NCBI GenBank assembly: GCA_009781755.1
Contig: WQVD01000013.1
Span: 1-64,000 of the forward strand
Reading direction: 5' to 3'
Length of the DNA stretch: 64,000 bases
DNA from: Defluviitaleaceae bacterium
GTDB taxonomy: Bacteria; Bacillota; Clostridia; Lachnospirales; WQUN01
In this document: positions 49,764 to 54,448 of the stretch, in pieces
How the letters are laid out: the number at the start of each line of letters is the position of its first letter
Numbering within the stretch: the stretch's first letter is position 1
Position numbers and translations under genes: made by a program
The notes under the pieces: model-generated
The model's input: the letters and a program-made list of their open reading frames with translations, nothing else
The model's database searches: none
What the model was told of the DNA's origin: nothing

Positions 49764-51608
49764 TTAAAAATAAGATTCGTACCACAAAATGAACATAAAA
49801 ATTGTCCAAATCTGCCGAGAGTTGTCTATTTTGCCCAATTTGTGATGTTCCAACATCGCCAATATCTTCTCTTGCTGAAAAATTTCACCAACAAACGGCT
49901 GCTCAAAGGCTTGACGCACGCGATTGTAATATTTTTCTTCGCGCAGCCACAAGCGGGTAGGTACGGGGAAACCGCGCCTCGCTTTAGGTTTGCCGTCGGG
50001 GAAGTTGGCCAATGCCGCTTGTTTCAACGCGTACTTGGTACCCTTGGCGTTGACGCGGTGCTTTGTCGATATCGTCGATGCCACCGCAAAGACTTCTTTA
50101 TCCAAGAACGGGGTGCGGATTTCCAACGAATTGGCCATGGCCATGCGGTCTGCTTTCAACAAGATGTCGCCCGCCAGCCACAGGTGCACGTCCAAATATT
50201 GCATTTTGGTAATGTCGTCGTAACCGTTCGCGTTGGCGGCGTCGTAATACGGGCGCGTGATGTCCGTTGCACGTATACCGCTCACAAACGCAGGCTGCAA
50301 TAAATCGGCACGCTCTTCGTCGGTGAAGGTGTGGAAATTGCCGATGTAGCGCTCTTCAATGGCCTTGCCCGCCAACGTCAAGAAGCGTTTGCCCTTGAAA
50401 TGCACGGGGATTTTTTGCACCAATTTACTAATCATCCGCCGCACGGGCATGGGGATAATCTTCATGAAGCCTAAATTATACGTCCGATGATAATGTTCGT
50501 ATCCGCCAAAAAATTCGTCCGCACCCTCGCCGGTTAGCGCACCCTTTACGTGCGCTCGCGCAGTTTGGCACACGAAGTACAGCGCAATCGCCGCCGGATC
50601 GGCTAAGGGCTCGTCCATATAATACTGCACGGTCTTTAACACTTTCCAAAATTCCGACGTAGTGATTACCCGGCTTATATTTTCGATACCCTTCGCCTCA
50701 GCCAATGATTTTGCGCTTTCAATTTCCGAGAAACCCTCGTACTCAAAACCGACAGAAAATGATTTTTTTACATTGGACACGGCGGTGATGTAGCTGGAAT
50801 CCCACCCACCGGACAGGAATGTGCCCAGCTCCGCTTCCGACCGTTCGTGAAACATCACGCTGTCTTTGACCACCGCGTCAATTTGCGCCACCACATCGTT
50901 TAAACCCTGCCTACCCTTGTGCGCATCGCTAGGGTTAAACGCTGCCTGCCAATACCGCGTCAGGATAACTTCGCCGTCCTTGTACCGCATAAAATACGCC
51001 GCAGGCAGCTTAAAAACCCCCTTGAAAAGCGTCTCTTCCAACACCGAATATTGGAACGTTAAATACGCTTCCAGCGCCACCGGGTTCAACGCCTGCACAA
51101 ACGCAGGATACTCCATAAACGACTTGATTTCCGAGGCAAAAAGCAACGCTCCGCCCACTTGTGTGTAATAAAACGGCTTGATGCCAAAAAAATCACGCGC
51201 GGCAAAAATCTCACCTGTCGCGTGAACATAAATGGCGAACGCAAACATGCCGCGCAAATGCGACAGCATCCCCTCGCCGTATTCTTCGTATAAATGCAGC
51301 AGCACTTCTGTGTCCGATGTAGAGGCGAATTGATGCCCTTTTACTGCCAGCTCCGCCCGCAGCTCAATATGATTATATATTTCGCCGTTAAAAACAATCG
51401 TCAATGCGCCATCCGCCGTCCGCATAGGCTGGTTGCCATGGGTCAAATCAAAAAACGCTAGCCGCCGAAACCCCAGCGATATGCCCGCATCCACAAAATA
51501 ACCTTCGCCATCCGGGCCGCGGTGCGCCACGCGCTCGGCCATACGGCGGATTACGGTGTTTTCATTATCGTTATATTCGCTACCTGTGAAACCTACAAAA
51601 CCACACAT
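49764..51608 (-). CDS. asnB: Asparagine synthetase (glutamine-hydrolysing)
   Basis: A 614-residue class II amidotransferase making asparagine from aspartate, glutamine and ATP. The nucleophile Cys2 (MCGFVGF) follows the start, then RGPDGEGYF, FNGEIYNH and SDTEVLL in the glutaminase domain; the synthetase PPi loop is FLSGGWDSS with Trp where Val is usual, followed by GEGADEFFGGYEHY. AAGGAG precedes ATG 51608. Thirty bases separate it from the response regulator, so it may head the same transcript. Confidence 0.95.
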   Translation of the reverse strand: MCGFVGFTGSEYNDNENTVIRRMAERVAHRGPDGEGYFVDAGISLGFRRLAFFDLTHGNQPMRTADGALTIVFNGEIYNHIELRAELAVKGHQFASTSDTEVLLHLYEEYGEGMLSHLRGMFAFAIYVHATGEIFAARDFFGIKPFYYTQVGGALLFASEIKSFMEYPAFVQALNPVALEAYLTFQYSVLEETLFKGVFKLPAAYFMRYKDGEVILTRYWQAAFNPSDAHKGRQGLNDVVAQIDAVVKDSVMFHERSEAELGTFLSGGWDSSYITAVSNVKKSFSVGFEYEGFSEIESAKSLAEAKGIENISRVITTSEFWKVLKTVQYYMDEPLADPAAIALYFVCQTARAHVKGALTGEGADEFFGGYEHYHRTYNLGFMKIIPMPVRRMISKLVQKIPVHFKGKRFLTLAGKAIEERYIGNFHTFTDEERADLLQPAFVSGIRATDITRPYYDAANANGYDDITKMQYLDVHLWLAGDILLKADRMAMANSLEIRTPFLDKEVFAVASTISTKHRVNAKGTKYALKQAALANFPDGKPKARRGFPVPTRLWLREEKYYNRVRQAFEQPFVGEIFQQEKILAMLEHHKLGKIDNSRQIWTIFMFILWYESYF

Positions 51609-52831: not shown

Positions 52832-54232
52832 CTAATTTGGTTTTTGTTCCTCCACACTTTGTTCCGCCGGGGTGGGTTGTGTTGTTTGTTTTGCGCTCAC
52901 TTTGCGGATGATACCGCAGGGGGTTTGTTCGCCGGATTGACCGAGGGGATTATCGCGAAGGATGGCGGCGTAGAATGCCTCTTTGATGCGGGGATGTGAC
53001 GTGCCCATTTGGTTCATTCCCAGGTCGTTGGCGTCTACGATGGACACGGGCACGCCCAGTTTTTGCGATAAGTAGATGGCTGCTTTGGCGGGTTTGTCGG
53101 GGGCTAGGACTACATATTCGTTGTAGGGGGGAATGGTATTGTCGCAGGGACCGTCAATGCCGCGTGCTTTGGCACCGGCTACGATATAAAACCAGCCACG
53201 GCGACGGAAGAGTTTGCCGATGACAGAGATGGCGGCGGCGAAGAGAATACGTGGTGTACCGCATTCGCGCAGGGCCATTTCCATGGTTTCGGGGATGCCA
53301 AGGCCGATGCCTGCGGGTGTTTTTTGTACATATTTGGAAAGGGTGATCGCCAGTTTGCGCGGTTTGATGTCTATTAATTTGATAGCACGGGATTGCGTAC
53401 AGGCTACGGCACGTTCGGAGATAAACACAAAGTCGCCGTCGCGCACGTGGGGGGCTAGGTGAGGCAGAAATGCCGTATCCAGCGTGTCCTCGTTGGTGAT
53501 GATGTGTGTGCGGATTGGATAGCGGGCATATTGTTCGCCCGCGTGTTCAATTTCTAAGGATTTGTTTTCGTTGGGTTCGGACGGGGCGGGGTCATTGGAG
53601 TCAAGGGGGGGGGCAGTATATGCAAGTTTCTTTTTGCTCATGAACTTATCTTCATTGCCGCGTATCAAACGCATGATGTTGCCGCGGTGCATAAACCACG
53701 CCAACGCGCCCAACGCCGATGTAACCGCAACCACTTGCCACGAATGACCAAACACGGCCATCCCCACGGGGATGAGCAAACTCATCAGCAACGATGCCAC
53801 AGAAATATAACGCACCACCAAAATCGTAACAATCATGATACCGGCGATGATTAAAGCCACGCGCCAATCCAGTGCGAACATTAAACCGATGGTGGATGCA
53901 ACGCCTTTCCCCCCGCGAAAGCGCAAATAGAACGGGAAGTTATGCCCCAGAATTACCCCCAGACCCGCGTACAGCCCCGGGTGTAAGCAATCCCCACAAC
54001 GACAATTTAACAACGCCGTAGCAAGCAAAAAAGCCAACACCGCTTTCGCAATGTCGGCAAAAAGGACGATAACACCCCAGCGAAAACCCAGCACACGGGT
54101 GACATTGGTCATGCCCGCGCCGCCGCTTCCGTAGTCGCGCACGTCGATTCCGGCTACTTTTTTCGATAAGAAATAACCGTTTTGGATACAGCCGAACGCA
54201 TACCCTATCAGCAGGGCAAACAGTACGTACAT
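52832..54232 (-). CDS. plsY: PlsY acyltransferase fused to a CofE-like domain
   Basis: A 466-residue fusion. Residues 1-210 are PlsY, which transfers acyl from acyl-phosphate to glycerol 3-phosphate in the membrane: five-helix layout, RDYGSGGAGMTNVTRVLG and GHNFPFYLRFRGGKGVAST. Residues about 245-440 resemble the F420-0:gamma-glutamyl ligase (CofE, PF01996) fold: RDGDFVFISERAVACTQSRA, FYIVAGAKARGIDGPCDNT and VSIVDANDLG. A linker with a nine-cytosine run (53605-53613) joins them, so a length change would separate the two. A PlsY of usual length would be about 200. Six bases after the DUF1858 gene. Confidence 0.85.
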   Translation of the reverse strand: MYVLFALLIGYAFGCIQNGYFLSKKVAGIDVRDYGSGGAGMTNVTRVLGFRWGVIVLFADIAKAVLAFLLATALLNCRCGDCLHPGLYAGLGVILGHNFPFYLRFRGGKGVASTIGLMFALDWRVALIIAGIMIVTILVVRYISVASLLMSLLIPVGMAVFGHSWQVVAVTSALGALAWFMHRGNIMRLIRGNEDKFMSKKKLAYTAPPLDSNDPAPSEPNENKSLEIEHAGEQYARYPIRTHIITNEDTLDTAFLPHLAPHVRDGDFVFISERAVACTQSRAIKLIDIKPRKLAITLSKYVQKTPAGIGLGIPETMEMALRECGTPRILFAAAISVIGKLFRRRGWFYIVAGAKARGIDGPCDNTIPPYNEYVVLAPDKPAKAAIYLSQKLGVPVSIVDANDLGMNQMGTSHPRIKEAFYAAILRDNPLGQSGEQTPCGIIRKVSAKQTTQPTPAEQSVEEQKPN

Positions 54233-54238
54233 GCTACG

Positions 54239-54448
54239 TTACGCCCCCTGCGCCTCCAGGTGCGCGTTAATTTGGTCGATGAGCTTGTCCACATCTACAC
54301 CATGGCCAATGCCTGCTTCTTCCAGCGTTTCGCGCTGGGCGGATGGACAACCGCTGGCACAACGCAAACCTGCTTGCATAAACAACGGGGCAATGCCTTC
54401 ACCCAGTTTCAAAATGTCCGCAATAATCATACCTTTTGATGCTCTCAT
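54239..54448 (-). CDS. DUF1858 redox-disulfide protein
   Basis: A 69-residue DUF1858 protein, the domain also found beside hybrid cluster proteins and called a redox-disulfide domain. ADILKLGEGIAPLFMQAGLRC, then CASGC (C-x3-C) and SAQRETLEEAGIGHGVDVDKL are diagnostic. The two cysteines probably form a redox-active pair. AAGGAG precedes ATG 54448. Immediately upstream of plsY on the same strand. Confidence 0.85.
   Translation of the reverse strand: MRASKGMIIADILKLGEGIAPLFMQAGLRCASGCPSAQRETLEEAGIGHGVDVDKLIDQINAHLEAQGA

What the first reader, a model, noticed from the sequence alone, without database searches (positions are those of the whole stretch)
52832..54232. PlsY acyltransferase fused to a CofE-like domain
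A 466-residue frame joins a complete PlsY (about 210 residues) to a ~200-residue domain similar to F420-0:gamma-glutamyl ligase. I know of no linked function between glycerolipid synthesis and CofE. The junction contains a nine-cytosine run, so slippage could switch between fused and separate forms.
Basis: partly seen in the sequence, partly recalled or inferred. Interest (0 to 1): 0.6.

Follow-up and report, generated by a model that had tools for sequence, protein, structure and literature searches.

The report
PlsY fused to CofE-like ligase
In a small group of termite-gut bacteria, an enzyme that starts membrane-lipid synthesis is joined to a borrowed ligase-like protein of unknown substrate; the join looks real and inherited, but what the second half does is not known.

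Summary
Window 52832-54232 (minus strand) is one 466-codon frame: a complete PlsY (residues 1-198), a loose linker (199-232) and a PF01996/CofE-fold domain (233-440). It is not an assembly or frameshift accident: all 5 genomes of the genus searched carry the fusion in one open frame, both domains are under purifying selection, and it holds the only PlsY found in each. The nine-cytosine tract is in the window only, so a slippage switch is not supported. Outside the genus PlsY stands alone, and the C-terminal domain is a free protein of about 230 residues, mainly in Oscillospiraceae and other Clostridia. The fused domains form one clade, which suggests one horizontal acquisition and one fusion. 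The domain has the CofE fold (Z 14.6 to 2PHN) but scores far below the CofE equivalog cut-off, lacks a CofE segment of about 26 residues and sits in genomes without CofD or CofH, so it is probably not an F420 ligase. PlsX and a FakA-like kinase are present, so it does not replace acyl-phosphate supply. Best reading: a membrane-tethered, NTP-dependent amide ligase of unknown substrate riding on PlsY. A real, lineage-restricted new domain architecture of modest interest.

The parts
52832..54232 (-). plsY::cofE-like fusion gene, 466 codons plus stop
   Evidence: same architecture in 5 of 5 genus genomes
53639..54232 (-). PlsY domain, residues 1-198 (G3P acyltransferase)
   Evidence: PF02660 full length; TIGR00023 138.7 bits over cut-off 137.2; model matches 5XJ5, rmsd 2.0, TM by target 0.88, 36% identity
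53537..53638 (-). linker, residues 199-232, variable and low confidence in the model
   Evidence: identity 34-84% and pairwise dN/dS 0.14-0.87 in 9 of 10 pairs; pLDDT 53 and 66 for residues 201-210 and 211-220
53605..53613 (-). nine-cytosine tract in the linker (nine G on + strand)
   Evidence: not present in the other four fusion genes
52913..53536 (-). CofE-like (PF01996) domain, residues 233-440
   Evidence: CofE fold by model
52835..52912 (-). variable C-terminal tail, residues 441-466
   Evidence: not conserved among the five fusions; low pLDDT
54489..55103 (-). signal peptidase I gene upstream of the fusion, neighbour in all five genus genomes
   Evidence: PF10502; tblastn hit in 4 of 4 other genus loci
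54239..54448 (-). 69-aa DUF1858 protein directly upstream
   Evidence: PF08984, E 4.4e-11
49764..51608 (-). asparagine synthase (AsnB) gene downstream on the same strand
   Evidence: PF00733 and GATase domains; hit in 4 of 4 other genus loci

Best explanation
A genus-level gene fusion in termite-gut Defluviitaleaceae. A whole stand-alone CofE-like protein of the kind found in Oscillospiraceae was acquired once and joined to the C-terminus of the only PlsY. PlsY still makes lysophosphatidate from acyl-phosphate and glycerol 3-phosphate. The C-terminal domain hangs in the cytosol on a flexible linker. It most likely acts as an NTP-dependent amide ligase (CofE chemistry by way of an acyl-phosphate) on a substrate that is not F420, with the fusion giving membrane tethering and 1:1 co-expression. 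Shown by computation: fusion, conservation, fold, family, distribution, single clade. Inferred: activity of each domain, cytosolic side, direction of transfer, purpose of the fusion. Unknown: the ligase substrate.
For: One open frame in 5 of 5 genus genomes, from assemblies tagged to at least two termite hosts (record titles; host codes in PMC7024585, passages read). Only one PlsY match per genus genome, the fused one. Purifying selection on both domains, looser linker. 29 columns are invariant over 43 fused and free family members. The start of the free proteins aligns within the fusion's linker, so the join is whole protein to whole protein. Fused domains monophyletic, 100/100, near three Oscillospiraceae sequences, fork 86/97. 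CofE fold: 2PHN Z 14.6, rmsd 3.2, 182 aligned, 20% identity; Foldseek E 4.9e-8. Profile alignment to CofEs from named plasmids, 97% probability.
Against: No biochemical data. No gene neighbour links the stand-alone protein to lipid synthesis: PlsY is not found in the held DNA of any unfused locus. Neighbours differ by clade (murB in one, mtaB in another), so the fusion may be a neutral accident that was then kept. Direction of transfer rests on a tree with an open fork.
Confidence: 0.6

Rival explanations
1. The fusion is an assembly or sequencing artefact at the C9 tract, joining two separate genes.
For: The tract is a typical place for an indel error, and PlsY and the C domain are separate outside the genus.
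Against: The other four genus genomes are fused in frame without the tract. The linker is codon-aligned across all five.
Confidence: 0.01
2. The C9 tract works as a slippage or phase-variation switch between fused and unfused forms.
For: A tract of nine is long enough to slip, and it is the only such run in the window.
Against: Not conserved in 4 of 4 sister genes. Other frames end in 19 and 3 residues, giving truncated PlsY tails and no separate C domain. No conserved internal start.
Confidence: 0.03
3. The C domain is a real F420-0:glutamate ligase and the organism makes F420.
For: PF01996 over its cut-off and the CofE fold.
Against: TIGR01916 16.3-18.9 bits against a cut-off of 180.65. CofD TIGR01819 0 of 5. 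CofH TIGR03551 0 of 5 over cut-off. A CofE stretch of about 26 residues after the DxxGRxxR motif is missing.
Confidence: 0.03
4. The C domain is a folate poly-glutamate ligase (FolC2-like), filling in for missing FolC.
For: FolC is absent over the cut-off in 4 of 5 genus genomes. A COG1478 protein of Chlamydia, CT611, replaces E. coli folC (PMC1971073, passages read). 14 of 43 family members match TIGR04132 weakly.
Against: G003 has FolC and the fusion. The window's own domain does not match TIGR04132 at E 0.01. All four FolC-less genus genomes also carry a separate ~400-aa PF01996 paralogue, absent from G003, which is a better candidate. FolC-less genomes of other genera lack the fused domain.
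Confidence: 0.15
5. The C domain makes or delivers acyl-phosphate to PlsY, as proposed for the PlsY-DegV fusions.
For: CofE chemistry passes through an acyl-phosphate (PMC10861534, passages read) and PlsY uses acyl-phosphate; PlsY-DegV fusions were read as channelling (PMC5700162, passages read).
Against: PlsX is present in 5 of 5 and a FakA-like YloV protein in 5 of 5, so supply is intact. The free relatives are not near plsY.
Confidence: 0.06

Closest known systems
PlsY glycerol-3-phosphate acyltransferase (PF02660, TIGR00023, PDB 5XJ5-5XJ8)
   Same: Full-length family match, fold and G3P-clamp motifs in the N-terminal half.
   Different: Carries a whole extra domain of about 230 residues; motif 1 reads GSGGAG rather than the GSGNAG of many relatives.
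CofE, F420-0:gamma-L-glutamate ligase (PF01996, TIGR01916, PDB 2PHN/7ULD)
   Same: Fold, N-terminal GD block, GID block, C-terminal TP-x-x-(I/V)-R block.
   Different: Far below the equivalog cut-off, lacks about 26 residues after the DxxGRxxR motif, has an insertion before GID, no CofD/CofH in the genome.
FolC2 / COG1478 of Chlamydia (CT611) and TIGR04132
   Same: CofE superfamily member in organisms that seem not to make F420.
   Different: The window's domain does not match TIGR04132; folate role untested.
PlsY-DegV fusions of Bellilinea and Thermanaerothrix, reported in PMC5700162
   Same: Extra domain at the C-terminus of PlsY.
   Different: DegV proteins bind fatty acids; here the partner has a ligase fold.
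FbiB (CofE domain fused to a nitroreductase domain)
   Same: A CofE-fold domain in a two-domain protein.
   Different: The partner is a soluble reductase of the same pathway, and the CofE part is the N-terminal half.

Membership tests
PlsY | Full-length PF02660 / TIGR00023 match over curated cut-off | tested here: met
   155.5 bits vs 24.1; 138.7 vs 137.2, narrowly
PlsY | PlsY fold | tested here: met
   5XJ5 rmsd 2.0, TM by target 0.88, 36% identity
PlsY | G3P clamp residues Ser35, Arg45, Lys104, His177, Asn180 (aaPlsY numbers, PMC5700162) | tested here: met
   S36, R46, K109, H182, N185 by motif spacing (my reading), in 5 of 5 fusions. Ser142 counterpart S144 or S147, not resolved
PlsY | Acyl-phosphate:G3P acyltransferase activity | not testable with these tools
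   -
CofE (F420-0:glutamate ligase) | PF01996 over gathering score | tested here: met
   36.3 bits vs 25; 43 of 43 family members match PF01996 at E <= 0.01
CofE (F420-0:glutamate ligase) | TIGR01916 equivalog cut-off | tested here: not met
   16.3 bits and 18.9 vs 180.65
CofE (F420-0:glutamate ligase) | CofE fold | tested here: met
   2PHN Z 14.6, 182 aligned, rmsd 3.2
CofE (F420-0:glutamate ligase) | F420 pathway partners CofD and CofH in the genome | tested here: not met
   CofD 0 of 5; CofH 0 of 5 over cut-off; draft genomes of 95-100% completeness
CofE (F420-0:glutamate ligase) | Segment after DxxGRxxR, next to the F420-contacting residues G153-C155 | tested here: not met
   Gap of about 26 columns against three annotated CofEs and one FbiB-length protein. 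That this stretch belongs to the F420 site is my inference from PMC10861534 passages
FolC2-like / TIGR04132 folate glutamate ligase | TIGR04132 match | tested here: not met
   Not listed for the window's domain at E 0.01
FolC2-like / TIGR04132 folate glutamate ligase | Fills a FolC gap | tested here: inconclusive
   FolC missing in 4 of 5 but present in G003, and a second PF01996 protein is present in exactly those four

The most novel reading that the evidence does not exclude
The C-terminal domain is a membrane-tethered amino-acid ligase acting on a lipid or lipid-precursor carboxylate next to PlsY, so that phospholipid initiation and an unknown amino-acid or glutamyl modification are coupled in one protein: a new branch of polar-lipid synthesis in these termite-gut bacteria.
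Probability: 0.08. Interest if true: 0.65.

Novelty: new variant of a known kind. Interest (0 to 1): 0.32.

Why it matters
The fusion ties an orphan CofE-like family, widespread in gut Clostridia and matched only by F420-named models, to a membrane enzyme that is normally essential. That is the only physical hint found here about where the family works. If the domain acts on lipids or at the membrane, the fusion points to the assay. If not, it is a neat recent example of transfer plus fusion onto a core gene, and a warning that an 'F420 ligase' label in Clostridia without other F420 genes should not be read literally.

Tried and rejected
Artefact at the C9 tract: rejected, the four other genus genomes are fused too. 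Slippage switch: rejected.

F420 ligase: rejected on equivalog score, missing partners and missing segment. PlsX replacement and fatty-acid kinase replacement: PlsX 5 of 5, FakA-like YloV 5 of 5.

FolC replacement: kept as a rival at low probability. Across the 61 relatives FolC and the long PF01996 paralogue often coexist, so the neat mirror pattern inside the genus is not general.

Neighbourhood as a clue: clustering of 861 neighbour frames around 80 loci found no partner common to all. mtaB is near in 30 of 110 loci, and murB plus a solute-binding protein in 15 of 110. Several 'clusters' are frames antisense to real genes (an artefact of mechanical frame calling) and were ignored.

Sequence-only PDB searches with the C domain gave nothing relevant; the structural search was needed. 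Profile comparison with the ~400-aa paralogue matched only 59 N-terminal columns. Searching plasmids and phages with the C domain gave one plasmid CofE at 28% and two unannotated 'Bacteriophage sp.' faecal records at 34-37%, not followed. PHROGs: none. In one search row L174 has a long branch. In one search the Natrinema frame was unusable (148 aa after its first Met, unannotated); I give it no weight, though it was among the five sequences of that profile. In one search the small upstream gene was read in the wrong frame; the corrected frame is and the wrong one is not counted. One search also found a PlsY frame in only 16 of the 25 loci L012-L036 by a motif filter (GGKG[VI]A), so 9 were left out of that alignment.

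Papers: no paper in the searches was seen to describe a PlsY-PF01996 fusion. One search listed 15 of 386 papers, and all 15 had a PlsY count of 0. These searches cover open-licence PMC only.

Full report
What is there. The frame 52832-54232 on the minus strand is open, 466 codons, with an ATG start. Pfam gives PF02660 over residues 9-189 across the entire profile (1.6e-45) and PF01996 over 240-392 (36.3 bits, cut-off 25). TIGR00023 (PlsY equivalog) is passed narrowly, 138.7 against 137.2 bits; TIGR01916 (CofE equivalog) is missed by far, 16.3 against 180.65. The nine-C tract is at 53605-53613 and is the only G/C run of 8 or more in the window.

Is it real? The window lies on contig 13 of a 2.64-Mb, 55-contig assembly. 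Of 61 genomes (own plus 60 relatives), 5 hold the C domain at E <= 1e-5, and these are the 5 of the same genus; none of the other 56 does. 56 of 61 hold PlsY. In the 5 genus genomes it sits in open frames of 457-471 codons (stop to stop), and in all other matching genomes the open frame is at most 267 codons. Each genus genome has one PlsY match, the fused one. Among 38 genomes of the family, 5 hold the C domain, again only this genus. Three of the five are also in a named collection as 'Defluviitaleaceae bacterium' MAGs Co191P3bin17, Lab288P1bin109 and Lab288P3bin217 (contig lengths agree). The host codes Co191 and Lab288 are Cornitermes sp. and Labiotermes labralis in the termite MAG paper PMC7024585 (passages read).

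The five proteins are 455-469 aa (window 466) and align end to end apart from the linker and tail. Identity over the ten pairs is 69-94% (PlsY), 34-84% (linker) and 70-95% (C domain). dN/dS (Nei-Gojobori) is 0.037-0.167 for PlsY (10 of 10 pairs) and 0.039-0.140 for the C domain (6 of 10 pairs; dS could not be computed in 4). For the linker it is 0.14-0.87 (9 of 10 pairs). Many dS values exceed 1 and are saturated, so only the contrast is used.

The tract. The other four genes have no nine-C run at the junction; the longest C run there is six. After the tract the two other frames stop within 19 and 3 residues. The in-frame Met at 198 is not conserved. Slippage could truncate the protein but would not give a separate CofE-like protein. 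A switch is not supported.

What the C domain is. With the five fused domains as a profile (A1), a scan of the genome collection kept 80 of 168 confirmed loci. 3 of these 80 are the fusions; in the other 77 the domain is in a frame without PlsY, mostly of 230-290 codons (one 334), and no PlsY hit is seen in the held DNA. In 391 genomes of the class, 35 match, and only the window's own genome has a frame over 272 codons. Record names point mainly to Oscillospiraceae/Ruminococcaceae and other Clostridia, with single records titled Calditrichales and Brevinematales. The alignment shows the free proteins starting within the fusion's linker, and PlsY ending where unfused PlsY proteins end, so two whole proteins were joined. 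In a tree of 43 sequences the fused domains are one clade (100/100) beside three Oscillospiraceae sequences (86/97, drawn open). One of these three, L075, is a Th196 record, and Th196 is Termes hospes in PMC7024585. A single transfer in an insect gut followed by fusion is the simplest story; the direction is inferred.

Fold and active site. The model of the C domain (pLDDT 88, pTM 0.84) matches A. fulgidus CofE 2PHN: Foldseek E 4.9e-8, VIA-align Z 14.6, rmsd 3.2, 182 aligned, 20% identity; the next entry that is not a CofE is at Z 3.5. A full-length model (pLDDT 86) gives 5XJ5 PlsY (rmsd 2.0, TM by target 0.88, 36%) and 2PHN, with a weak linker between the halves. Against CofEs annotated on named plasmids the profile match is 97% probable. 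The N-terminal GD block, the GID block and the C-terminal TP-x-x-(I/V)-R block align. A stretch of about 26 columns after the CofE DxxGRxxR motif is missing, and an insertion precedes GID. PMC10861534 (passages read) says G153-C155 and a domain-swapped hairpin contact F420 in CofE; that the missing stretch is part of this site is my inference. I did not map the metal- and nucleotide-binding residues of CofE one by one.

What it is not. CofD: 0 of 5; CofH: 0 of 5 over cut-off, three weak partial hits at 18-20 bits. The family members match the CofE equivalog model only weakly (33 of 43 at E <= 0.01, best E 1.2e-10; the window's domain 18.9 bits against 180.65). So an F420 role is unlikely. PlsX is in 5 of 5 genus genomes and a FakA-like YloV protein in 5 of 5, so PlsY does not need the C domain for acyl-phosphate.

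Folate. FolC is over the cut-off in 1 of 5 (G003, two hits, an assembly with 5% contamination) and absent over the cut-off in 4 of 5. A second PF01996 protein of about 400 aa is in exactly those four and missing in G003. Because of that mirror image the long paralogue, not the fused domain, is the natural FolC stand-in. Over all 61 relatives the two often coexist, so this is only a lead. CT611 of Chlamydia, a COG1478 protein, rescues E. coli folC (PMC1971073, passages read).

How it most likely works. In aaPlsY the glycerol-phosphate clamp, which includes the near-C-terminal Asn180, opens to the cytoplasm (PMC5700162, passages read). The linker follows that motif directly, so the C domain should be cytosolic; this is inference. 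The simplest function is two independent enzymes on one chain: PlsY as usual, and an NTP-dependent amide ligase held at the membrane. PMC5700162 reports a Pfam search that found no PlsX/PlsY or PlsY/PlsC fusions but two PlsY-DegV fusions, a precedent for an extra C-terminal domain on PlsY. I saw no report of a PlsY-PF01996 fusion in the searches.

Verdict. A genuine, inherited, genus-restricted new domain combination of two known families, with an unknown ligase substrate. Not a switch, not an artefact, probably not F420. Interest 0.32.

Noticed in passing
G000:C2:19075-20214 (L057); A second, ~400-aa PF01996 protein is present in the four genus genomes that lack FolC and absent in the one (G003) that has FolC: a possible FolC replacement. 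The mirror pattern does not hold across the wider family.
   Followed up: partly
L137, L144 and 13 of the loci L152-L167: In one clade the free CofE-like gene sits next to a solute-binding protein gene and murB; in L137/L144 the run continues with PHP, rapZ, a CofD-like (YvcK-type) gene, lepB and whiA (names by eye except PF01547/PF13416, PF02873 and PF01933).
   Followed up: partly
L147:3075-11003: In a record titled Brevinematales the free CofE-like gene lies inside what looks like a V-type ATPase operon (by eye).
   Followed up: no
MT835656.1:5930-6661 and MT838774.1:2215-2886: Two unannotated human-faecal 'Bacteriophage sp.' records encode relatives of the C domain at 34-37% identity; may be bacterial DNA in phage sets or mobile copies.
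   Followed up: no
window 54239-54448 (-): A 69-aa DUF1858 protein (PF08984, E 4.4e-11) lies directly upstream of the fusion.
   Followed up: partly
window 54104-54130 (-), residues 35-43 of the fusion: PlsY motif 1 reads GSGGAGMTN in all five fusions where many unfused relatives read GSGNAGTTN or GSGNAGTSN.
   Followed up: partly
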